Positions 8,291-62,015 of a DNA stretch of 64,000 nt are shown here, piece after piece. Source of the DNA: Paragorgia papillata (lineage: Eukaryota; Cnidaria; Anthozoa; Scleralcyonacea; Coralliidae). The stretch covers positions 864,001 to 928,000 of the forward strand of contig JAWNZC010000261.1 of assembly GCA_035771165.1 (NCBI GenBank). Direction: 5' to 3'. Below the pieces are notes generated by a model. It made no database searches and was not told where the DNA came from. It worked only from the letters and a program-made list of their open reading frames with translations. Both the position numbers and the translations under genes were made by a program. Numbering within the stretch: position 1 is the first letter of the stretch; each line of letters starts with the position of its first letter.

Positions 8291-9617
8291 TAGGGGAATA
8301 CTTAATACTCCTCCCCGCATAGGCACAGGTTATACTATGTCCATAGCTAGGGGAACATTCTATACTCTCCCGCAAGGCACCATACAACCCAATGCAACCA
8401 GATAATCATATTACAAGGAAAAATAAAGAAAATACTGTACATATCAATAAAATTTAAAACAATCTTCATGCCTAGGTGCACTTTGCACAGATTCCGCCTC
8501 AAAATTTATAAACCTTAGGATGCCTGCTGTCTTTATCCTCTTACCAAGGGTGGTAACATTTGTTACAGAGTCATCAAGGTCTGCAGAGATCGCATTCCAG
8601 ATAACAGAACCCCTATACGTAATTGAGTTCTTCATATAATATGTATTGAAGCGCGAAACATTTACTTTATGTGCATTACGGAGACTATACTTATTTTTAG
8701 ATTTTGTTATTATATGGGTCATACTTAGTGGTGTAATAATGTTGTTATACATCTTATAAGCTAATTGTGCCAGTCTTATCTTATACATTTGATTGAGTGT
8801 ATCCCATTTGACCTGCTCTAAGACCTCAATAGAGGGCATTTCACGTGATAGACTAAATATCACTCTGGCAGCTCTACAATGTAGAGATTCCAAAGAATGA
8901 AAGCCTTCCTTATTGGTACACCCACCCCAATTTGGCATCGCATATGTTATAGAGGATATAATAATATTAAAATACAAACCTAGGAGCATTTGCCTTGATA
9001 AGAATATGCTACATTTTATCATGTTCAGTTTGTTAGCGAATCCTTTTTTGTTTCTAATATGCATGTCGAAACCATGTTAATTTGTCATCAATCGTAACTC
9101 CTAACAACCTTGAATGAGCCACCCACTTTACCTGATGTGATCCAAGCGTTAGTATATTCAATGGGCCTGTAAAATTTCCCCTATGCATTATCATAGCCTC
9201 GCACTTCTTTTGGATGAGGTGCTAGAGAATTTAATCGACATCATTCCATTAGCTCGCCAAGGGCTTTATTGAGCAGTGAAGTCACCTCGTCAATAGTTTG
9301 CGCCACACAATAAACTGTGGTATCGTCTGAGTACATATATACAGAGCCTGAACCAACTGCACCAGGTAAGTCGCTCGTATACAAAGTAAACAGTGTCGGC
9401 CCAAGGACTGATCCCTGAGGAATGCCATAAGTGACTTCAGCATAATCTGGTTGCTATCCATTAATAACGGTGAATTGTTTTCTCTCACTAAGATAATCTT
9501 TTAACCAGGTCAGTAGATTTCATTTAACACCAAAATTGTGTTCCAGTTTATGAATCAGAATCCTATGTGATACACTGTCGAATGCTTTCTGAAAGTCAAT
9601 GAATACTACTCCTACAA

Positions 9618-11716: not shown

Positions 11717-12288
11717 TTAAATGCGGCATTCAGTCTAGCCACTTTCCAATTATTATACACTATACCTTTAATTAAACTTCGCTAGTATAGGTTTGGCCAG
11801 AGGTGTTACTACAGCCATTCCTGCCAATTTTAAGAGCTTAGGTGAGATTCCATCTGGTCCGATTGCTTTTGCAGGTTTCAACAAAGCAAGCTTCTTTTCA
11901 ACTTCACTTCTCATCAACTGAGCTTCCGATATGCACGGGGCTGGTATCACTTGTGTGCAGTGTAATAGTTGCGGTTCAAAGTTCCTCGCCAATGTACGGT
12001 GGAAAAGAAACAATTCATCAGATTAGCTTTTTCTTTGTCATCCACTGCAAGGCTTCCGTCGTCGTCGAACGGCCCAATAGCCTTCCTCTCTTTAGGCTTG
12101 GTAGCTTTAGTAAGTAAGTTCCAATAACGCTGCAGTGGTTTTAACTTCATAAAGTTTCTCTTGGAAGTATGCTGCCTTGGCTTTTCTGATCTCAGACGTT
12201 ACTTCATTCCTAAGTTTCTTGTATTTGGTTATATCTCGCTAGCCTTTGTTTCTATCGCCTTCTTAAATAACTTATATCTGCGATTCAT
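11609..12288. repeat. Direct repeat copy 2 (identical to 1-680)
   Basis: Right end of MITE copy B plus the LINE relic, identical to the left edge of the window. Ends exactly where the satellite begins. Confidence 0.95.
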
Positions 12289-15200
12289 TCAGTGCGGTGC
12301 AGTAGAGCACAGTGCAGTGCAGTAGAGTACAGCACTGTGCAGTAGAGTACAGCACAGTGCAGTAGAGCACAGTGCAGTGCAGTAGAGCACAGTGCGGTGC
12401 AGTAGAGCACAGCGCGGTGCAGTAGAGCACAGTGCGGTGCAGCAGAGCACAGTGCAGTGCAGTAGAGCACAGTACAGTAGAGCACAGCGCAGTGCAGTAG
12501 AGTGCAGTGCAGTAGAGCACAGTGCAGTGCAGTAGAGCACAGTGCGGTGCAGTAGAGCACAGTGCGGTGCAGTAAAGCACAGTGCAGTGCAGTAGAGTAC
12601 AGCACTGTGCAGTAGAGTACAGCACAGTGCAGTAGAGCACAGTGCAGTGCAGTAGAGCACAGTGCAGTGCAGTAGAGCACAGTGCAGTGCAGTAGAGCAC
12701 AGTGCGGTGCAGTAGAGCACAGTGCAGTGCAATAGAGTACAGCACTGTGCAGTAGAGTACAGCACAGTGAAGTAGAGCACAGTGCAGTGCAGTAGAGCAC
12801 AGTGCAGTGCAGTAGAGCACAGTACAGTAGAGCACAGTGCAGTGCAGTAGAGTGCAGTGCAGTAGAGCACCGTGCAGTGCAGTAGAGTACAGTGCAGTGC
12901 AGTAGAGCACAGTGCAGTGCAGTAGAGTGCAGTGCAGTAGAGCACAGTGCAGTGCAGTAGAGCACAGTGCAGTGCAGTGCAGTAGAGCACAGTGCAGTGT
13001 AGTAGAGCACAGTGCAGTGCAGTAGAGCACAGTGCAGTGCAGTAGAGCACAGTGCGGTGCAGTAGAGCACAGTGCAGTGCAATAGAGTACAGCACTGTGC
13101 AGTAGAGTACAGCACAGTGAAGTAGAGCACAGGGCAGTGCAGTAGAGCACAGTGCAGTGCAGTAGAGCACAGCGCGGTGCAGTAGAGCACAGTGCGGTGC
13201 AGCAGAGCACAGTGCAGTGCAGTAGAGCACAGTACAGTAGAGCACAGTGCAGTGCAGTAGAGCACAGTGCGGTGCAGTAGAGCACAGTGCGGTGCAGTAG
13301 AGCACAGTGCGGTGCAGTAGAGCACAGTGCAGTGCAGTAGAGTACAGCACTGTGCAGTAGAGTACAGCACAGTGCAGTGCAGTAGAGCACAGTGCGGTGC
13401 AGTAGAGCACAGTGCGGTGCAGTAGAGCACAGTGCGGTGCAGTAGAGCACAGTGCGGTGCAGCAGAGCACAGTGCAGTGTAGTAGAGCACAGAGCAGTGC
13501 AGTAGAGCACAGTGCGGTGCAGTGGAGCACAGTGCAGTGCAGTAGAGCACAGTGCAGTGCAGTAGAGTACAGCACAGCACAGCACAGTGCAGTAGAGTAC
13601 AGTGCAGTGCAGTAGAGCACAGTGCAGTGCAGTAGAGCACAGTGCATTGCAGTAGAGTACAGCACAGTGCAGTAGAGTACAATGCAGTGCAGTGCAGTAG
13701 AGCACAGTGCAGTGCAGTAGAGCAAAGTGCGGTGCAGCAGAGCACAGTGCGGTGCAGTAGAGCACAGTGCATTGCAGTAGAGTACAGCACAGTGCAGTAG
13801 AGTACAATGCAGTGCAGTAGAGCACAGTGCAGTGCAGTAGAGCACAGTGCGGTGCAGCAGAGCACAGTGCGGTGCAGCAGAGCACAGTGCGGTGCAGCAG
13901 AGCACAGTGCGGTGCAGTAGAGCACAGTGCGGTGCTGTAGAGCACAGTGCAGTAGAGCACAGTGCGGTGCAGCAGAGCACAGTGCGGTGCAGCAGAGCAG
14001 AGTGCAGTGCAGTGCAGCAGAGCAGTAGAGCACAGTGCAGTGCAGTGCAGTAGAGTGCAGTGCTGTGCAGTAGAGTGCAGTACAGTGCAGAAGAGCACAG
14101 TGCGGTGCAGTGCAGTAGAGTGCCAGTAGAGCACAGTCCAGTGCAGTACAGTGCAGTACAGTGCAGAAGAGCACAGTGCAGTGCAGTAGAGCACAGTGCA
14201 GTGCAGTAGAGTACAGTGCAGTGCAGTGCAGTAGAGCACAGTGCAGTGCAGTGCAGTGCAGTGCAGTAGAGCACAGTGTAGTGCAGTGCAGTGCAGTGCA
14301 GTACAGTGCAGTGCAATGCAATGCAGTAGAGCACAGTGCAGTGCGGTAGAACACAGTGCTGTGCAGTACAGTGCAGTGCAATACAGTGCAGTGCAATACA
14401 GTGCAGTACAGTGCAATACAGTGCAGTGCAGTGCACTGCAGTGCATTGCAGTGCAGTACAGTGCAGAAGAGCACAGTGCGGTGCAGTAGAGCACAGTGTA
14501 GTGCAGTAGAGCACAGTGCAGTGCAGTAGAGCACAGTGCAGTGCAGTAGAGCACAGTGCATTGCAGTAGAGCACAGTGCAGTGCAGTAGAGCACAGTGCG
14601 GTGCAGCAGAGCACAGTGCGGTGCAGCAGAGCACAGTGCGGTGCAGCAGAGCACAGTGCAGTGCAGTAGAGCACAGTGCATTGCAGTAGAGTACAGCACA
14701 GTGCAGTAGAGTACAATGCAGTGCAGTAGAGCACAGTGCAGTGCAGTAGAGCACAGTGCGGTGCAGCAGAGCACAGTGCGGTGCAGTAGAGCACAGTGCA
14801 TTGCAGTAGAGTACAGCACAGTGCAGTAGAGTACAATGCAGTGCAGTAGAGCACAGTGCATTGCAGTAGAGTACAGCACAGTGCAGTAGAGTACAATGTT
14901 GTGCAGTAGAGCCCAGTGCAGTGCAGTAGAGCACAGTGCAGTGCAGCAGAGCACAGTGCGGTGCAGCAGAGCACAGTGCGGTGCAGCAGAGCACAGTGCG
15001 GTGCAGCAGAGCACAGTGCGGTGCAGCAGAGCACAGTGCGGTGCAGCAGAGCACAGTGCGGTGCAGCAGAGCACAGTGCGGTGCAGCAGAGCACAGTGCG
15101 GTGCAGCAGAGCACAGTGCGGTGCAGCAGAGCACAGTGCGGTGCAGTAGAGCACAGTGCGGTGCCGTAGAGCACAGTGCAGTAGAGCACAGTGCGGTGCA

Positions 15201-16655
15201 GCAGAGCACAGTGCGGTGCAGCAGAGCACAGTGCAGTGCAGTAGAGCACAGTGCATTGCAGTAGAGCAGTGCAGTAGAGCACAGTGCAGTGCAGTGCAGT
15301 ACAGTGCAGTACAGTGCAGAAGAGCACAGTGCGGTGCAGTGCAGTAGAGTGCCAGTAGAGCACAGTCCAGTGCAGTCCAGTGCAGAAGAGCACAGTGCAG
15401 TGCAGTAGAGCACAGTGTAGTGCAGTAGAGTACAGTGCAGTGCAGTGCAGTGCAGTGCAGTAGAGCACAGTGCAGTGCAGTGCAGTAGAGCACAGTGCAG
15501 TGCAGTGCATTGCAGTGCAGTGCAGTGCAGTGCAGTGCAGTGCAGTGCAGTGCAGTGCAGTGCAGTGCAGTGCAGTGCAGTGCAGTGCAGTGCAGTACAG
15601 TGCAGTGCAATGCAATGCAGTGAAATGCAATGCAGTAGAGCACAGTGCAGTGCGGTAGAACACAGTGCTGTGCAGTGCAGTACAGTGCAATACAGTGCAG
15701 TACACTGCAATACAGTGCAGTGCAGTGCACTGCAGTGCATTGCAGTGCAGTACAGTACAGTGCAGAAGAGCACAGTGCGGTGCAGTAGAGCACAGTGTAG
15801 TGCAGTAGAGCACAGTGCAGTGCAGTAGAGCACAGTGCAGTGCAGTAGAGCACAGTGCATTGCAGTAGAGCACAGTGCAGTGCAGTAGAGCACAGTGCAG
15901 TTGCAGTGCAGTGCAGTGCAGTGCAGTGCAGTGCAGTGCAGTGCAGTGCAGTGCAGTGCAGTGCAGTGCAGTGCAGTGCAGTGCAGTGCAGTGCAGTGCA
16001 GTACAGTGCAGTGCAATGCAATGCAGTGCAGCACAGTGCAGTGTGGTAGAACACAGTGCAGTGCAGTGCCGTGCAGTGCAGTGCCGTGCAGTGCAGTACA
16101 GTGCAATACAGTGCAGTACAGTGCAGTGCAATACAGTGCAGTGCAATACAGTACAGTGCAGTGCATTGCAGTGCATTGCACTGCAGTACAGTGCAGTGAA
16201 GTGCAGTACAGTACAGTACAGTACAGTACAGTACAGTACAGTACAGTACAGTACAGTGCAGTACAGTACAGTACAGTACAGTGCAGTGCAGTGCAGTACA
16301 ACGCAGTACAGTGCAGTACAGTGCAATACAGTGCAGTACAGCACAATGCAGTATAGTGCAGTATGATACAGTGCAGTACACTGCAGTATAATTCAGTGCA
16401 GTGCAGTACAGTACAGTGGAGTACAGTGCAGTGCGGTATGGTACAATGCAGTATAGTACAGTATGGTGCAGTATAGTACAGTATGGTACAGTGTAGTACA
16501 GTACAGTACCATATGGTACAGTACAGTGCAGTATAGTGCAGTACAGTGCAGTGCCATGCAGTGCAGCACAGTGCAATACAGTGCAGTACAGTACAGTGCA
16601 GTACAGTGCTGTATGGTGCAGTATGGTACAGTGAAGTACAGTACAGTACAGAGGA
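12289..16655. repeat. Pentamer-derived satellite, main unit 20 bp
   Basis: Tandem array of about 4.4 kb. The dominant unit is AGTGCAGTGCAGTAGAGCAC, which is four pentamers: AGTGC, AGTGC, AGTAG, AGCAC. Runs of pure AGTGC occur at about 15,500-15,600 and 15,905-16,000; AGTAC dominates from 16,200 to 16,650. A longer duplication is visible: the unusual string AGTGCCAGTAGAGCACAGTC occurs near 14,119 and again near 15,347, about 1.23 kb apart. The minus strand has no stop codons in any frame over more than 4 kb because the unit contains none, so giant open frames there are an artefact. Confidence 0.97.
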
Positions 16656-17486
16656 TCACTCGATCTTTAGGTTCAATGGTTATAGATCCAACATTAACAT
16701 AACGCATGCACAATTTACCATTTATTTTCACATTGTTTAGTCTTTTGAGTTTTGACCAAAAGGTCAGTAAGAAAACTCAACTGGTGTGGAAAATGTATTC
16801 ATTACTGATGTTTCTTGTCTGAAAGACACATCGTTGTCAACATCCTCAGTCTTTCAACCTCTCAAATGATTAAAGTTTAAAAGATAGTATTGATATTTGA
16901 CAGAACCTATACAGTACCTACACCTAAACCCTAAACATGCTTCCATACACATCCAGTCTGATTCAAAACAGAAAACGAAATCTACAGATTGAGTGACTTA
17001 AATTCAATCATGACCACAAGTTCATCAGTTCAGTAACCACATTTAATCTTCCCATTCTATAATTTATTACAGCACCATATCAGCCTTCGTAAGTGTTTAG
17101 GCTTTGATGCCTTGATGATCTATTAAGACTAACTGAGTGATAATGTCAGACCTTGTACTGATTGTTGAAAAGATCTGACAAGTAAAACTCAAATTAAACC
17201 ATATTGTGCATGTGTTATGTCAATGTCAGATCTATACCCATTGAACTTAAAGATCCAGTGTCAGAACTATAACCATGATGTAACCTTTAAGGCCTTAATG
17301 TTATGTGTAACAAAACAGTATGTGTAAATTCAAACCACTTAAATACTTTTTCTTAAATACATCCACTGTTTCTTCAACATTGTACAGGTATAACCATAAT
17401 CCATTACAGAAGAGGTGTTTGAATTTACACATATTTATAAACACTAAAATTGTAATACAGATATTTGTTTAAGCAATAATATCTAA
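16656..17486. other. No gene seen; AT-rich intergenic DNA
   Basis: Unique-looking AT-rich sequence, no exon, no clear repeat. Confidence 0.5.
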
Positions 17487-17811: not shown

Positions 17812-17915
17812 GTTAGCCCTTTGAAGCCTGAAGATGAGTCTTTAGTATTTTATTCTGGCTAATGCCAGACGGTTTTATTCAGCACAGCGAGAGGTCCAGG
17901 CCTCAAAGGGTTAGT
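17812..17915. repeat. Short dispersed element, copy 2
   Basis: Ends GTTAGCCCTTTGA and TCAAAGGGTTAG are inverted. The inside holds TAGTATTTTATTCTGGCTAA and GCCAGACG, shared with the copies at 31,607, 60,444 and 62,275. Confidence 0.75.
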
Positions 17916-28478: not shown

Positions 28479-28502
28479 TTAAAGTGCCTATGCAGCCCTT
28501 TC
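28479..28502. repeat. Left TTAA and terminal inverted repeat of Kolobok element
   Basis: TTAA followed by AGTGCCTATGCAGCCCTTTC. Confidence 0.95.
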
Positions 28503-28794
28503 CGTTCTTATATTTCTGTAAAGTTTACTCATAGAAAATAATAATATTAAAAAAAATAATTCAAAAAGGTAAAATTAAGTCGGATTTATTGCCGCTCAAA
28601 CTTTCCGACTTATCCAAAAATTCCGCAAAATGTAGAGGCCTGGGGCGAGTACCCTCTGGCGTCATTTAAGAGAGGCTTGTCAATTTGTAGCACTGATTTC
28701 TAGTCTAAAAGGCTTAGCAGAGTCTGGTCTTCTAGTGTGTTTGGAAGTTTTTTTCGCTATTCGCATCTCTTTAGTAGCGTTATACGTTTTAAGA

Positions 28795-29811
28795 ATGTCC
28801 ATGGCAGATTCTGAATCGAGTTCAGGATCTGAAATCGAACCATACGAAGATATCGACGAGGAAAAAGGCGAAGTAGAAGGCGAAGAATACACCAAACATG
28901 TTGGAGCTGAGTCGGACGTGAGAGAAGCAGATTGTATTCCTTATGTTGACGAACCCCTTGCTGATGAGGTCTGGTTGGCTGAATACTTAAAAAATAAAGA
29001 GAAGGAAGAAAAGCAGGTGGAAGAATATCAGAAACGGCTAGAAGGGCTGACGCCGACGGATTCATGGTAAGAACAAAACTTCGACAGTGTGATTGTAATA
29101 TTTATAAAAATGTGACATAATTTGAATTATAAAAAAATGTTGCTTTCTATTTTAATATATTTTAAGGTGTAAATGTGGAAACTGTAACACAGAATTATTA
29201 ACGAATGCTAAGGAAGTTATTTGCTGCAGGGAAATCGAAAGATGCGTAAATGCACTACGAGAAGAAAGGGTCATTGTGAAAGTTGGCCAAGAACCAGATT
29301 GTATTATAAACCATCCAGGCTTTAGATCAGTCTGCCTAAATGTGTGGTCTTTGAAGTTATCTGCCAGCATGTTCAAAACTCGGCAAAAAAGAAAATATCA
29401 AAAGGATGGCTCGGAAGAAAGGTAAAAAATGTCGATTGGTTGCTTGTTATTGCAGTAAAAGGTAATAGTGTGGCTTTTTATAGCTAGCTTGTTTTGACAA
29501 AAAAGGTGGGGTTTTTTAATACATTAACAAATAAATTTCTAATACAACTGTAATAGCAAACTGTACAGGTGACATGCACGCCCACCTTAATTTATCATAT
29601 ACATATCTTAAAAAAATGCAATAACTTAGTACTGTTTCAATTCCACAGGTTTCTTCGTAGTGTTTCATACAGGCAGTTCACAAGAATGGTTCATGGCATG
29701 CTTCGTGATAAAAGAATTCCACTACCTGCATGTGCTTACCATGCTATTCGTACAGCCTTTAAATGTGCTGATGAGAATTTTGAAGGATATGATGAAGATG
29801 ATAGTACATAA
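28795..29811 (+). CDS. P2X7 intracellular (ballast) domain protein
   Basis: Three exons, 28,795-29,066, 29,167-29,421 and 29,649-29,811, with standard GT/AG sites and compatible phases, give 229 residues and a TAA stop. Start chosen at ATG 28,795 (A at -3); a second ATG follows at 28,801. Residues 1-60 are acidic (EIEPYEDIDEEKGEVEGEE), 60-85 charged helix, then W91-C-K-C-G-N-C97. A CC pair near residue 111 (VICCREIERC) and the block YRQFTRMVHGMLRDKRIPLP with C-AYHAIR follow. The W-C-x-C-G-x-C / CCxE / YRxF...IPLPxC order is that of the zinc-binding cytoplasmic domain of P2X7 (P2RX7_C). No transmembrane segment or ATP-binding ectodomain is present, so it is not a channel. It lies inside the Kolobok-type transposon, opposite the transposase, and may be an accessory DNA- or protein-binding factor (inference). 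Confidence 0.88.
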
Positions 29812-30167
29812 ACAAATTAATGTTCAGGTACATTAGCTCGACAGTCTACATTCAGGAGAAATTGCATTTTCTCCTAATAAAATGTTTTGTTATTGTAGTG
29901 CAGGTCTGATCACTTCATTACGTTCCAATGCATTATGTACAGCTAGTTTTAGTAATATTAGTTTTAATAGGGTTATTAAGAATATTTATGAAAGTGGAAA
30001 AATATATACTGTATATTAAATAAAAATACTATAAAGAAATTGTGATGGGCAGAGTGCACTTAGGAGACCCACAAGTTGATAGTGATTAGCTACTGTAGTA
30101 ATAATGCAATAATTTAATGTGTCAGTAATATTATCTGCGTATCCACCAAAATACAAATACAGTCACA

Positions 30168-33100
30168 TCACTTTTGGTTCCTGGGGCAAGTTGTGATATT
30201 CTTGTGGCCTTTCATTGGATTTTTGCATATGGAACAATGTGGTCTTGCTCTTTCTTTATCCTGAGAAGCTGCAGGCTCTCGCACTGACAATCAATAAAAA
30301 TTAATTAAAATAGATGATATTATTACAAAAACAATTCTTTATTTATTTATGGCATGGATTTATGAAATAATTTTTTAAAAATGTCCTGATTTTCGACAGA
30401 CATATATTGTGAACAAACACATTTTGATTTTTCTGATGAAAATCTACATGTATTTTTATGCACTAAAAATGGAGCAACAGTTATTTCTAACCTGGGTTAG
30501 TAGAAGGTATATCAACAGCTTTCATACTCCATCTAGCATTTTGTTTTTTGATGGCCTCATCCCTTGATTGTTTCTCTAGCATACTGTGCATAGGCAAAGG
30601 AGTCATTAGTTGCAGTTCTGTTTTGGCTTTATCCAAGGTTTTGTCTTGAATGGCACACAGTGCTGTCTGGTAAATATCTTCAACATAGTCTACAGTAAAC
30701 GTTAAGGATGATATAAACCAGCAGCAATCTTTGCCTTAATTAGCTTTTGCTATTTGTAGGGTATTGTTAATTTTGTAAAAAGAATGCATAATTATTTTGT
30801 AAATAAAATTGTAAGTGTACACTTGTGAAAATATTACCAAAATTCTGGGTGACTGTCACCTTCCTTACAACAGCCTCGCCATTCTTGAATTTAGGATAAT
30901 CCACTTTAACTTGGTTAACACCATTGATTTTCTTTACATTTCTTCTCAAGTTGTTGTTAAAATGAATAACGGCAAAGGCATGTCTAGAAAAATAAATATA
31001 ACAGAATGACTTGACGGTTTTGTACTGTAGTTTCTATATGGTTTCTTATGATTTTATCATTTTACTTGTTGAGAAAGATATGCAGAAATGGGTTGTTGTT
31101 CAAATACTGTACACCACCTGCAGAACATCCCAGGAAAGGAATAGCTGATCATTTTAGGTGAGAATTGATTTAACACGGAATGAAAACCTTCCAGGCAGCT
31201 GGTCTGATCCAATGGAGAGGCTTTCATAATTCCAGCAATAAGACTTCGCTTAGTCAAGGCAGCATACATCTCGTTATAAGCAATAGAATCTGGAACATTG
31301 AAAAATTAAAAACATTATAAATTAATAACTATATTAGTACATGTACTGACAGTACTGTATACTGTATATAATATTAATGCCTTTTTTGTAGGGAATTAGC
31401 GGTAGGCTTAAAAATTTCAGCTTGCTATAAAATAAACAATTCACAGTTAAAAAACAAGTTGGAGGCTGACAGAAGTAACATTCTTGGTGATTTTGGGATC
31501 ATTTAAAGTGATCAACTTCTGTACAATGTCTTTTGTATACCAATTACGTTTTATTATCCAGTGGCAAATAATCTAATATAATCATTACTGAAGGGGGGGG
31601 GGGATTTTATAGATGAACGTCTGGCATTAGCCAGAATAAAATACTAAAGACCAGTTTGGACAGGAAAGAGTTAAACCTTAATTGGTTAAATTAATTGTTA
31701 CCTTCATTAAGCCATTTGCGATCTTTGATATGCAAATCATGTGCACACTTGTCGAACAGCCTATCTGGTAATCCACTGTGTTTGTTTATAACGTGGCTTA
31801 AAAATGACTTGAACTTTGCCCATATTACCAATCCATTACCACTGAATGTCGATGTTGCACTCCAAAACAAGTGGTTGGTGCATGGTTTGATCCATTCCAA
31901 AAGTGACTCACATCCACTTTCCTTTGCAAGTTTGGTCAAGACTTTGTTCACCTCTAAAAGGATAATACAATACAATACAATACAATACGAAAACTTTATT
32001 TTTCATCTGTTATCAACACCAAACATAGTTGGTAGTGCAGTTCATTCCAAGGATCTGAATACTGTATTTTTTTATATTAAAATAATTTAATATAATACTT
32101 TTTAATTCCTAAATACATTTAGACATAAGCCTTACTTTTTTTTAAATGCCAAAGATCAAAATAATGGACAATATCTCTGTTCTTTTCTCTCATATGTTTG
32201 GCAATAGATGTATGTCTATCGGATACAAATGTTGAAATACCAATATCTCTTGCAAGGAGGTAGTCTAGTGACCTTTTAAAGCCTTCATATTCCATCCCAG
32301 AACTACTTCCTACTTCATTTTTCTTTAAAAAGACAAAGATAAATTGGCTGTCATTGTAAAACTGCCACATAATAATTTTAAAAATAAATATGTTACAGTA
32401 ACAAATATGATAATAAATGGTTGGTCTGGAAAAATTACTGTATTTCCCCCATTAAACCCCTTAGGGGGGTTTTATAGATCCAGGCCATCAAGAGAAGGAA
32501 AGGAAGAAAGGAGCATATTCAATTTTCCAAGTCAGAGTAAGCAAGAAACTGTAAACTACATATACAGTACAGTATAACCCATTTTTTATTATATACACTG
32601 TAGTTACAGTATAATTGTAGACAGAAAATACAACATACTTGGAGGGAGCTCAATAAAGGAGATTTATTTTTATTTTTTCTACAATTGAAGGACAAGGTGG
32701 TCTTGTTGGAAAAAGGCATGATAGAGGAAGGATTTCTATTTAAATTATGACATGAAAATCTATAAATAAACATTAATTAAAAATTATTAGTTACAGTATT
32801 AGTTAACTGTTACAGTATATGTACTTAGTTAATAAGGTAGTCTGTATGAAGTACTGTATTAATTACCTGAACAAGGGAAAATTGAATAATATTCGGGTTA
32901 TTACAACAGAATGTTGTGTAGGCACAGTATTTTGCACTGTGCCCCATTGAGTCATGTCTGCCATCCCCAGCAATAACCAGACCTTCACCAGATGCCTTTA
33001 ATTTTTCAAGCAAATCTGACTGGTACTTCTTCCAGTGCAACAGTACTGAAGGAAACAGCTTCTCCTACAAATAGGATATAGAAGTATGTAGGACAAGATT

Positions 33101-35096
33101 TGGTGACATTCAACTCAAGGTTATAACAAGTTTTCCTAAACTACAGTAGGAGAAATGTTGTCATTATCACATAAGCAAAGTCTAAGACCATAAGTTAGAG
33201 GACATTTTAAACCTTCCACCTTTCAAAATAAATTGTTTCGTTCTACTTACACTTTGGTGATAGAAGAATGTACGTAATGAAATACAAGCAACTCCCATAT
33301 GCTGAAAAACTCTTAAAACTTTTCTTGCAGAGGTTCCTGCAACAAGGATAGCAAAAGAAAGCAAGAAATTTCCAGCTGGTATCTGAGTTCCGGTCATAAG
33401 TGGTTGACTATTCCAAGTGAAGTTCTTTCTGCTACATGCTGGGTTGTTACAAGTCGATTTAACCCGGACCATGGTACCATTTTGACACACTTCAGTAAGG
33501 AGATTATCTGCCTTGCAATTAGGACAACCTTTAACAGAGCCAACAACTGTGTAAGAAACACAATAAACTTTGGCTCTGTTCTTAAAATACTGTCCTTAAT
33601 AAACACCCTGCAATCAGAAAATATAACAGCTTTTAGATTGCTTTTTCTCAGATCAACTACAGCACTGTTAGTACATGTAGTATTTGGTATACTATATACT
33701 GTACATCCTAGACTATTACTAACAATAACCACAAGTCAATGATGAGTAATATGATAAACATTGTATGTAGAGAACTATAAAAAACATACCTTCTATGTTT
33801 TTCCTCGCCTTCGCCATCATCCATGTCAGATTCAGCAGTTGAATGTGCTTCATTTTCAGTGTCATAAAGGGATTCATTTTCATCCTGATCCATAGGTTCC
33901 TCTTCAGATTCTTCGGATTGGCAGTTGTCAGATTCTGAGTCATTCGAGTCAACAAGTTTCTCGTGACACTTCAGCTGATCGTCATCCTCATCATCTTCAC
34001 TGTCAGTGAAACTTGAGTCACCTGTCAATTTCAAAATAATAATTAGAGCAAAATTGTAAATTGTGAATATAAATTATACAACGCATAACTCAACTGTGCA
34101 AAGTCCGGACAAAATTAAACCAGAAATAAGTACGTATTTTTTATACCATTGACTCCATTGATTTTATATAAAGAACAACGTTTTTTTTACTCTCGTCTCT
34201 CCATTAAAAAGATGTTTGAACAATGGACTCACCTGATTTAGTTTTACATTTGATTAGTTCAGATCGGCAAAGATTGAGTTTATGCTTTGCTGCCATCCAC
34301 ATGTTCCTGAAATGTCGACTCTTTTTCTCGAGAGATGCACAAGACAAACAATCAGTTTCCCATTGTATTTCAACTGCCTTGAACTATGAAAGATAAACAA
34401 AAATACCGTATATTGAAATATATCTTTGCCAAGCACAAACAATTAGTAACACATATAATATTTACTACAGAAACTAATCCTTACCAAAGGTTCTTCCTCA
34501 ACGAACTGTTCTTCAGGTATGTCTGGTGCATCTGGGCTCTCTTGCTGATTTTCTTTGTTTGATTCTTTGGGTTCTTCATCTAGCTGTATTAAGTCTGGAC
34601 TGTGTGGCTGTGTTTGACAGGCGCTGCTGCTTGAAGTAAACCGCTCAGAAAACAACTTTTTTTTACTAAAACAAAATACAAAGGTTGAAATTAAAATATC
34701 TGCAAAGCTGAGGTAATATAAAGATAAACTGGCTTTACTCACCATTCTAAGATCTCGTGATGAGATTGGTTGATTTTTAATTTTTGCTTTATGAATTGTT
34801 GGAAAAGCCACGACGCCAAATTCATCTCTAATGAGCCTTGGACTATTCTCCTTTTGCCCAAAAAGACTGCCAAATCTCCGCTGGAAGGCTTCAGGAGAAA
34901 AATGATCGGAACATACTGCCGAGTTTATTGTTGGCACAAACTTAGCACGAGTCATCTTTACAAAATTGACCCAAAGCTTCCTCCTTCTCTTTGCCTCAAC
35001 TCTGACATCATTGAAGAAAGGAATACGATGAACAGATATGTCTTTTTCCAAATTCGCTTCATTCGAACATCCGTAAACAGCGCATCTATCAGGCAT
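30168..35096 (-). CDS. THAP-domain Kolobok-type transposase (12 exons, frameshifted)
   Basis: Exons: 34,743-35,096; 34,485-34,665; 34,233-34,383; 33,790-34,021; 33,251-33,607; 32,867-33,064; 32,138-32,322; 31,702-31,953; 31,118-31,289; 30,838-30,983; 30,492-30,689; 30,168-30,283. Start at MPDRC because THAP fingers begin at the N-terminus: C5-x4-C10, C62-x2-H65, P26, W42, and a VAFPTI box. Exon 4 is acidic. Exon 5 has CPNC and CNNPAC followed by TWNSQPL and PAGNFLLSFAILVAG. Likely DDE residues: GDGRHDSMGHSAKY (exon 6), SDRH (exon 7, with HYFDLWH) and SCLEGFHSVLN (exon 9). The last exon ends in a zinc knuckle, CSICKNPMKGHKNITTC. Phases agree from exon 5 to 12. Two defects: exon 5 needs a one-base shift near 33,528 between LLALLK and GCPNC, and the exon 1/2 phases do not match (an A8 run is adjacent). 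The role is cut-and-paste at TTAA. Confidence 0.87.
31607..31676. repeat. Short dispersed element, copy 3 (in transposase intron)
   Basis: GTCTGGCATTAGCCAGAATA, then AAATACTAAAGACC and GACAGGAAAGAGTTAA. This is the reverse of the motif at 17,840 and 60,470. A run of nine or ten G lies just before it. Confidence 0.75.
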
Positions 35097-35362
35097 GTCG
35101 AGATTTGCATAAACACCGGTGAATATTAAATTACATGGAGGAAGGTTCGTGTTGACAGAAATTTTTACTCCTCTCTTAAATGACGTCACAGTTAGGTTCC
35201 AGACTCCAGAAACTTGTTTTCGGTTTTTTATTGCTGAGCTGGAAAATTTGCCGGTTTTTGTCAACTTTGATCTAAAATATCTCGAAAACGAAATATGCAA
35301 ATTGAATTCTGTAAACGGGGATCTTATTATTTTTTCTTTCACGATAAAAATGTGTTAAATCT

Positions 35363-35386
35363 GAAAGGGCTGCATAGGCACTTTAA
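35363..35386. repeat. Right terminal inverted repeat and TTAA of Kolobok element
   Basis: GAAAGGGCTGCATAGGCACT followed by TTAA, the exact reverse complement of the left end. Confidence 0.95.
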
Positions 35387-38144: not shown

Positions 38145-38686
38145 CAGGGGCGGCGTGGCCCACCGGGACACCGGGAAATTTCCTGGTGGGCCCCGATGAT
38201 CTGTATACCTTGTGGGCCCCCAACAATTTGTGACTGGTGGCCCAAATATTTCGGTAGATGCTTAGCTGGTTGGCCAATAATTTTTAACCACTAGTACTGC
38301 AGCATAAGCTAAGGTCTTAGAGAAACGAACAATTCATTTCAAAAAACCTTTAGTATTTCGAAATTTTTTTCCAATTCAACGTTGCCTATGCAGCACATTT
38401 ATTTCATAGTATTTTATAATATTAATCCGTGTATTGAAAATAACAAGACTGCATGCATGCAACTATTGTACACGTTAGATTATAAATATTGTATCGTTGT
38501 TTTTCTGTTTTTAAACTTTTAAAATTTTGCTAAAAGGTGTTGTCGGAACTTCATTTCAGACACCCAAATTTCAAAAATTTTCCGGGGGAGTATGCCGGCA
38601 GTTCTAAATTCTTATGATGATGACCCCTGAAAGTGGGCCCTAGAATGTGATTTCCCGGGCCCTATTTCAGAGCCACGCCGCCACTG
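38145..38686. mobile_element. hAT MITE with perfect 8-bp target duplication
   Basis: CACATGAT at 38,137-38,144 and 38,687-38,694 is the target duplication. Ends are CAGGGGCGGCGTGGCCCACC and, reversed, CAGTGGCGGCGTGGCTCTGA. 542 bp, non-coding, and rich in GGGCCC-type runs near the ends. A textbook hAT non-autonomous insertion. Confidence 0.95.
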
Positions 38687-59954: not shown

Positions 59955-60443
59955 AGTAGACGGACTAGGCAAACTTTGTCAAATTTTCTGTCAGAATTTT
60001 CGCCAAGTCAGCATAATATCGTCCTGGTCTCGAGTTTGTGTAAACAAAACATTTGTTGAGCGGCCCGGGATGTTTTCATGATAAGAGTCTCATTGTAGTT
60101 CTGAACTATAATAATAATAATCCTAGACAATTACTGTTGTAGCTTTCTAGCAGTCTGAATTAAAGACGTGCCGGCCGGCGGTACCGCACGAAAACTTGGC
60201 AATAAAATAAACAAGACTGTCAATACACATGGTCATGGAAATCTACAAACATTTCGTTTTGTGAAGTCGCCAGCTCTATAAAGAACCGCTGAAGATCACG
60301 AGAAAATCGTAAAGAAGCGAGGCGTACCGAGTTCTTAGGGGCTGTTTACATGGGAGGCGATATTCCTATTTGGTCAGACAAATAATCCAGCAGGCATCTT
60401 GAGTTGTTCCACAAGAAATTAACAATGACCAAGCTGCATGCAT

Positions 60444-60540
60444 TAACTCTTTCCTGTCCGAATTTATTGGTCTTTACCCTTTAGTATTTTGTTCTGGCTA
60501 ACGCAGTAACGCCAGACGATTTTATTCACCTCTGGGGAAG
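60444..60540. repeat. Short dispersed element, copy 4
   Basis: TTAACTCTTTCCTGTCCGAA, then TAGTATTTTGTTCTGGCTAA and GCCAGACG. Same family as 17,812 and 31,607. Confidence 0.75.
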
Positions 60541-61325
60541 CCCTCGCATTGGAACGATTTATTAATAAAGTAAGAAAATCGCTTTGTATTTACATAAATA
60601 TTCTTTTTTCCTACGATAAGTATGTCAGTGGTCGCTACCATTAGCAGAAGGACCCATAAATGCCGCTATTTTGAAAGTGAAAATGGGGACACATTTTTGG
60701 CCAGCACCTGCAGTCCAGTTATATATATATATAGGTCAGTGTATATACTGCATTATTCAAAATGGCTGAATATCAAGGAACGCCGAACAAAGAAGAAATA
60801 CAAGTCAGTCTGGTGTGCTCCCTTGCCCAAACCTATTATTAGCAGCTGCGGGTTATCCGATGGTGCGGGTAATGCGCTTATTTATTTTTCCAAAAGTGAC
60901 ATTTTTGTTGCTGTGTGGGTTATACGCTGTGCGGATTATCGCCCAGAGAATACGGTAACCCTACTTAATTTAACCTATTATCTACCTGTATATATGTGTA
61001 TGAAGTACATGCAAGTGATAACGGTAAATGTTAATGAAACTGTTACTGTATTATAATTATTGAATTTCTATTGCTTGCAGATATTTACTATGGCTTATAC
61101 AACAGCCTATGTACCAGGAACCATGCAACAATTTTATGAACTGCTAGAAAAGTTCAGTAGAGCTGTAGAAGCAACATATCCAGATCTACTGAAAAAGCCT
61201 AAAATGCATCTGTTGCATCATCTTCCCTAGGATATGACTGACTTGGGTTCAGCAACGGGTTTCTGTACAGAAAGGTTAAAAACTGAAATAAATTTATTTA
61301 CAGTCAAACTGAATTTTCTTTAGCA

Positions 61326-62015
61326 TGTAACTTGCAATATTATCTTGCAATACAGTGCAATACAGTGCTCAAAGAAAATGTCAACCAAACTTGAGCGCCT
61401 TCAGAATCAGGCCATGCGCTCGATACTTAAGGCTAAGAGACAAACCTGCACCCAGACCATGCGTAATAAATTAGGATTGCTCTCTTTGTCCAATCGCAGG
61501 CGGTTCCTTCGCTTTTTACTAGTATTTAAAATTGTAAATAGGTTACAATGTCCGGAACAATTAATAGACTACTTGCAACTTCGTTCAAATATGCATAGCA
61601 GGAATCTCCGTGACAATACTCTGTTACACCTCCCTAAAGTTAAGTCATCTATGGGCCAGTCCACTTTCCAGTACTCAGCAGCTGCAGACTGGAACAGTTT
61701 GCCTAGGAGTCTTAGGGAATTTAAGTCATTAGCTGCGTTTAAGTATGAGATATACAGCTATTTGAGCGACCTTGATCGCACTACGCATCAATGTTCATGT
61801 AATTAGATTGCTTATATCATTGTTTTGAATTTTATAGTTATTTAATATTTTATATACCATGTAATGTAACCGATGATGATTTTTTTAAGGGTTTTTCTAT
61901 AGATGATGTATTTAGTTTATAGCTGCACATGGGTTGATACCAGTCGGTACTTTTGTACCAGCTGATCCATTTCTTGCAGGGTAAATAAAGGTTTTATTAT
62001 TATTATTTTTTTATT
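61326..62015 (+). pseudogene. 5'-truncated LINE 3' end
   Basis: Open frame 61,345-61,806: KLERLQNQAMRSILKAKRQT, then MRNKLGLLSLSNRRRFLRF, NLRDNTLLHLPKVKSSMGQS and AAADWNSLPRSLREFKSL. This is the domain after the reverse transcriptase in CR1/L2-like LINEs. The 3' UTR ends in a short ATT-rich tail (about 61,993-62,012). Only the last part of ORF2 is present, with no inactivating change in it, consistent with a young 5'-truncated insertion in an intron. Confidence 0.85.

What the first reader, a model, noticed from the sequence alone, without database searches (positions are those of the whole stretch)
28483..35382. Kolobok-type transposon that carries a P2X7-domain gene opposite a THAP transposase
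Seen: TTAA duplications, 20-bp perfect terminal repeats, and exactly two spliced convergent genes. One encodes a THAP-DDE protein; the other a 229-residue protein whose only recognisable domain is that of the P2X7 receptor tail. Known: P2X7's cytoplasmic zinc-binding ballast domain is unusual among P2X receptors, and stand-alone P2X7-C proteins are numerous in cnidarians. Inference: those stand-alone proteins may be transposon accessory proteins, and the vertebrate receptor tail might descend from such a gene. I cannot tell whether this pairing has been described.
Basis: partly seen in the sequence, partly recalled or inferred. Interest (0 to 1): 0.88.

Follow-up and report, generated by a model that had tools for sequence, protein, structure and literature searches.

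The report
Kolobok transposon with its KolX gene
This is one copy, in what looks like a coral-like animal, of a known type of jumping gene that carries two genes, one of them related to the tail of the vertebrate P2X7 receptor; that link was already published in 2022, so the find is real but not new.

Summary
At 28483-35382 lies a 6,900-bp element with perfect 20-bp terminal inverted repeats, TTAA on both sides, a three-exon + strand gene for a 229-aa P2RX7_C ('ballast') protein, and a convergent multi-exon THAP-DDE transposase gene. Correction: compared with relatives, the transposase gene has a reading-frame break inside one exon near 33,529, so this copy's transposase is probably broken; the P2X7-C gene is open.

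Kojima & Bao 2022 (PMC9587614, passages) state that the Kol0 lineage of Kolobok transposons encodes a transposase plus 'KolX', that KolX has the P2X7 ballast fold, and that the P2X7 tail, and probably Nanor, descend from KolX.

Added here: a subterminal inverted repeat (17 of 18 bases) upstream of both start codons; KolX and transposase relatives on contigs of identical length in two octocorals (2 of 47 KolX rows); and in KolX only two of five GDP-contact residues of P2X7 are kept (25 of 25 each), which agrees with Rump et al. 2020. The window's own genome and structure prediction could not be reached.

The parts
28479..28482 (.). TTAA target-site duplication, left
   Evidence: read directly
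28483..28502 (+). left terminal inverted repeat, 20 bp
   Evidence: exact match to the reverse complement of 35363-35382
28657..28675 (+). left subterminal inverted repeat TGGCGTCATTTAAGAGAGG, 120 bp upstream of the KolX start codon
   Evidence: best 18-base match 17/18 to the right copy; 0 of 200 shuffles of the two ends (first 22 bases left out) reach 17
28795..29066 (+). KolX (P2RX7_C protein) exon 1: acidic N-terminal part
   Evidence: splice model; tblastn with P0001 and P0002
29167..29421 (+). KolX exon 2: WCxCxxC, CC and CIxxHPGF motifs
29649..29811 (+). KolX exon 3: LRxxxYR ... PLPxCxY motifs, stop codon
29876..29881 (+). AATAAA, possible poly(A) signal of KolX
   Evidence: script; motif only
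30171..30283 (-). transposase last coding exon (C-terminal CxxC...C zinc-knuckle-like motif)
31118..31289 (-). transposase exon with the catalytic E (CLEGFHS)
   Evidence: E676 of P0020 nearly invariant in A3
31702..31953 (-). [quoted passage not shown]
32136..32322 (-). transposase exon with the second catalytic D (SDRH) and the DLWH (C/DxxH) motif
   Evidence: D531, D552, W554, H555 of P0020 invariant or nearly so in A3
32867..33064 (-). transposase exon with the first catalytic D (AGDGRHD)
   Evidence: D464 of P0020 nearly invariant
33251..33609 (-). transposase exon with a reading-frame break at about 33526-33532 relative to P0015 and P0020
34743..35096 (-). transposase exon 1, THAP domain
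   Evidence: Pfam PF05485 E 7.2e-12
35170..35188 (-). right subterminal inverted repeat TGACGTCATTTAAGAGAGG, 73 bp upstream of the transposase start codon
35363..35382 (-). right terminal inverted repeat, 20 bp
35383..35386 (.). TTAA target-site duplication, right

Best explanation
A copy of a Kol0-lineage Kolobok DNA transposon, about 6.9 kb, inserted at a TTAA site in an anthozoan, probably octocoral, genome. The THAP-DDE transposase is inferred to bind the ends through its THAP domain and cut and paste the element into TTAA. The convergent gene encodes KolX, a small protein with a strongly acidic N-terminal part and a cysteine-rich P2X7-type ballast domain. I think KolX most likely acts as a zinc-stabilised accessory protein of the element, helping the transposase or its regulation in trans. 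Shown: ends, target duplication, two genes, conserved catalytic and zinc-type residues, a shared subterminal repeat. Inferred: mobility, DNA binding, zinc binding and every step of what KolX does. This copy probably does not make an intact transposase but could still supply KolX.
For: TIR and TTAA; P2RX7_C and THAP matches; DDE and DxxH residues invariant or nearly so over 37 relatives; 19 of 37 members of A3 match Pfam Mutator-like transposase PF20700 and 18 of 37 match THAP; ballast cysteines at 22 to 25 of 25 rows; KolX and transposase relatives with consecutive LOC numbers (114539600 and 114539599) on contigs of the same length, 310,116, in D. gigantea, and on contigs of the same length, 70,185, in P. 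clavata; Kol0 definition and KolX = ballast fold in PMC9587614; TTAA, AG ends, THAP and DDE as Kolobok marks in PMC6004289.
Against: No second copy was seen: none in the window (the one further near-match of the end, 38381, has 3 mismatches and no TTAA beside it), and the own genome was unreachable. The transposase has a frame break. Only 2 of 47 KolX rows shared a contig length with a transposase row; that list is thin, so this neither proves nor disproves a general pairing. A single-sequence search against solved structures matched P2X7 only weakly (best E 0.028; 0.0036 with a 13-row profile).
Confidence: 0.88

Rival explanations
1. KolX is mainly a regulator: a zinc-containing protein with an acidic tail that tunes transcription or silencing of the element, for instance through the subterminal repeat shared by both promoters, rather than taking part in the cut-and-paste reaction.
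For: N-terminal part charge -19 to -29 in the 8 proteins scored (window plus 7 relatives); subterminal repeat lies upstream of both start codons; Rump et al. cite a guess that Nanor acts in transcription regulation (passage).
Against: No DNA-binding domain was recognised in KolX (Pfam); acidic tails are not specific; no functional data.
Confidence: 0.3
2. KolX supplies a guanine-nucleotide site in trans to the THAP-DDE transposase, playing the part that the built-in GTP-binding domain plays in the P element transposase (P element facts recalled, no call).
For: P2X7's ballast binds guanine nucleotide (PMC7016195 and PMC9859053 abstract listing); the equivalents of R546 and R578 are R in 25 of 25 KolX rows and Y550 is Y in 24 of 25.
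Against: The equivalents of H547, R574 and K583 are absent: H 0 of 25, R 0 of 25, K 0 of 25 (the next column has K in 8 and R in 1 of 25). Rump et al. 2020 report the same loss in invertebrates. No P element transposase chain appeared among 48 rows at E up to 10 with the transposase profile.
Confidence: 0.06
3. KolX here is a host gene that happens to lie inside, or was recently picked up by, one Kolobok copy.
For: Only one complete copy could be examined.
Against: Same pairing suggested in two other octocorals; the pairing is the published definition of the Kol0 group; symmetrical subterminal repeat before both genes.
Confidence: 0.03

Closest known systems
Kolobok superfamily, Kol0 lineage (Kolobok-1_XT and relatives; Kojima & Bao 2022, PMC9587614)
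   Same: TTAA duplication, AG...CT ends, DDE transposase with C/DxxH motif, second protein KolX with the P2X7 ballast motifs.
   Different: No difference found. The passages I read do not state the orientation of KolX or mention THAP (0 occurrences), so convergence could not be compared.
Xenopus XKol elements (Hikosaka et al. 2018, PMC6004289)
   Same: TTAA targets, AG ends, THAP plus DDE transposase.
   Different: The term search found no mention of KolX or P2X in that paper; end sequences differ.
P2X7 receptor ballast domain / ZCD and Nanor proteins (Rump et al. 2020, PMC7016195)
   Same: Cysteine motifs, LRxxxYR and LPxC...IR motifs.
   Different: KolX has no channel part; it lacks the H547, R574 and K583 equivalents.

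Membership tests
Kolobok superfamily | 4-bp TTAA target-site duplication | tested here: met
   28479-28482 and 35383-35386
Kolobok superfamily | termini 5'-RR and YY-3' | tested here: met
   AG at the left end, CT at the right end; rule from PMC9587614
Kolobok superfamily | DDE transposase with C/DxxH between second D and E | tested here: met
   AGDGRHD, SDRH, DLWH, CLEGFHS in the window, invariant or nearly so in A3
Kolobok superfamily | THAP domain in the transposase | tested here: met
   PF05485 E 7.2e-12; listed as usual for Kolobok in PMC6004289
Kolobok superfamily | H2CH putative zinc finger between second D and E | tested here: inconclusive
   H and C residues are there by eye (exon 31702-31953), but I did not align them to the published motif
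Kol0 lineage | second protein KolX with the P2X7 ballast fold | tested here: met
   PF20478 E 1.2e-7; cysteine motifs. The fold itself was not modelled (structure prediction busy in seven tries).
Kol0 lineage | transposase groups with Kol0 in a tree of Kolobok transposases | not tested
   published reference alignment not held here; no tree built
Kol0 lineage | several copies with the same ends in the genome | not testable with these tools

The most novel reading that the evidence does not exclude
KolX is a trans-acting nucleotide-responsive cofactor of a THAP-DDE transposase, a split version of what the P element transposase carries in one chain, and the subterminal repeat in both promoters couples its dosage to the transposase. 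If so, the guanine-nucleotide site of the P2X7 tail would be a relic of a transposition checkpoint. The half-kept GDP site (2 of 5 contact residues) speaks against it without excluding it.
Probability: 0.05. Interest if true: 0.75.

Novelty: new member of a known kind. Interest (0 to 1): 0.17.

Why it matters
It confirms, in one well-delimited copy, the published view that P2X7-type ballast domains live in Kolobok transposons. It gives a clean pair of genes, ends and promoters for testing what KolX does, which none of the passages I read settles. By itself it does not change the picture.

Tried and rejected
Ends searched elsewhere: 0 matches of a 22-mer (TTAA plus end) in viral contigs; 50 matches of a 16-mer in genome contigs, below the roughly 120 that my own arithmetic expects by chance in 257 billion bases, so not followed up. 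A near-match at 38381 (3 mismatches; 3 matches in all against a chance mean of 0.30) has no TTAA beside it and was dropped. The search for related loci in viral contigs: 18 pattern stretches for KolX and 77 for the transposase, none confirmed by tblastn. The continuous transposase model was rejected as a faithful product. The only four solved-structure sequences up to E 1 were three P2X7 and one MmeI for the single sequence, and four P2X7 for the profile. The transposase profile gave only THAP domains at E below 1e-3. Tree of P2RX7_C with vertebrate P2X7: not built, because no vertebrate P2X7 sequence came back (the protein search admits only lengths of 0.55 to 1.75 times the query).

For the residue counts I used 24 of the 49 rows plus the window protein; the 25 dropped rows were short, partial or near-duplicates. 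For alignment A3 I used 37 of the 66 rows. For one search I used the 47 of 49 KolX rows and 60 of 66 transposase rows that print a contig length.

Full report
The element. The sequence at 28483-35382 is bounded by a perfect 20-bp inverted repeat, and TTAA stands on both outer sides. Each repeat occurs once in the window. The element is 34.5% GC, with 39% to the left and 36% to the right.

The KolX gene. On the + strand three exons (28795-29066, 29167-29421, 29649-29811) join to an open 229-aa protein. It matches Pfam P2RX7_C over residues 72-223, E 1.2e-7. The best is Dendronephthya gigantea at 55% identity. The host is therefore most likely an anthozoan, perhaps an octocoral; this is inference.

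The transposase gene. On the - strand, exons from 35096 down to 30171 match relatives in order. The first exon is a THAP domain. The catalytic triad and the DLWH motif are present and conserved. Sixty-six relatives were found; of 37 aligned, 19 match the Mutator-like transposase model and 18 match THAP. The longest near matches include P. clavata P0016 at 74% over 79% of the searched part and D. gigantea P0015 at 63% over 96%.

Subterminal repeat. A second inverted repeat, TGGCGTCATTTAAGAGAGG at 28657-28675 and TGACGTCATTTAAGAGAGG at 35170-35188 (reverse strand), matches at 17 of 18 bases; 0 of 200 dinucleotide shuffles reached 17, mean 13.4, largest 16. The copies lie 174 and 194 bases inside the ends and upstream of the two start codons. 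They may be promoter elements or transposase binding sites; no call tests this.

Pairing elsewhere. Both species are octocorals. These are the only matches: 2 of 47 KolX rows against 60 transposase rows. The listing shows one contig per 90% cluster, so the other 45 rows are not evidence of absence. Strand and distance were not visible. No such loci were found in viral contigs.

Prior art. Kojima & Bao 2022 (PMC9587614; abstract and outline; Background; [quoted passage not shown] that KolX resembles residues 476-595 of human P2X7, the cytoplasmic ballast; that this had not been pointed out before; that P2X7 arose by fusion of a P2X4-like gene with KolX; and that Nanor is likely a domesticated KolX. 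Rump et al. 2020 (PMC7016195; passages) described the ballast domain in stand-alone proteins across animals, without any mention of transposons under the terms searched. The term KolX together with Kolobok occurs in one paper of the held library. THAP, TTAA and AG ends as Kolobok marks are in Hikosaka et al. 2018 (PMC6004289; passages). The finding is thus a new copy, perhaps a new family, of a described kind; whether this family is in Repbase was not checked.

What KolX may do. Of 25 aligned KolX proteins, ten cysteine columns are C in 22 to 25 rows, in line with zinc binding. Of five P2X7 GDP-contact positions, R546 and R578 are kept in 25 of 25, H547, R574 and K583 in 0 of 25, the pattern that Rump et al. 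report for invertebrates. A nucleotide role is thus weakly supported. The N-terminal part is acidic in all 8 proteins scored. I favour an accessory or regulatory zinc protein; the split between reaction and regulation stays open.

Not reached.

Noticed in passing
12272-16666: A 4.4-kb tandem array (units of about 20 bp, CAGTGCAGTGCAGTAGAGCA) leaves three - strand frames open for more than 1,300 codons each; these are repeats, not genes.
   Followed up: no
17838-17871, 31618-31651, 60443-60504: A 34-bp stretch in an intron of the transposase gene is identical, reversed, to one at 17838-17871 and 76% like one near 60443-60504. Around 17817-17912 the sequence begins CCCTTTGAAGCCT and ends AGGCCTCAAAGGG, so it may be a small inverted-repeat element, with a relic inside the transposon.
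   Followed up: partly
8444-9076 (-) and 61324-61806 (+): Two open frames that by eye resemble the C-terminal part of non-LTR reverse transcriptases; Pfam gave no match at E 0.01.
   Followed up: partly
1-64000: No Rfam family reached its gathering score anywhere in the window.
   Followed up: no
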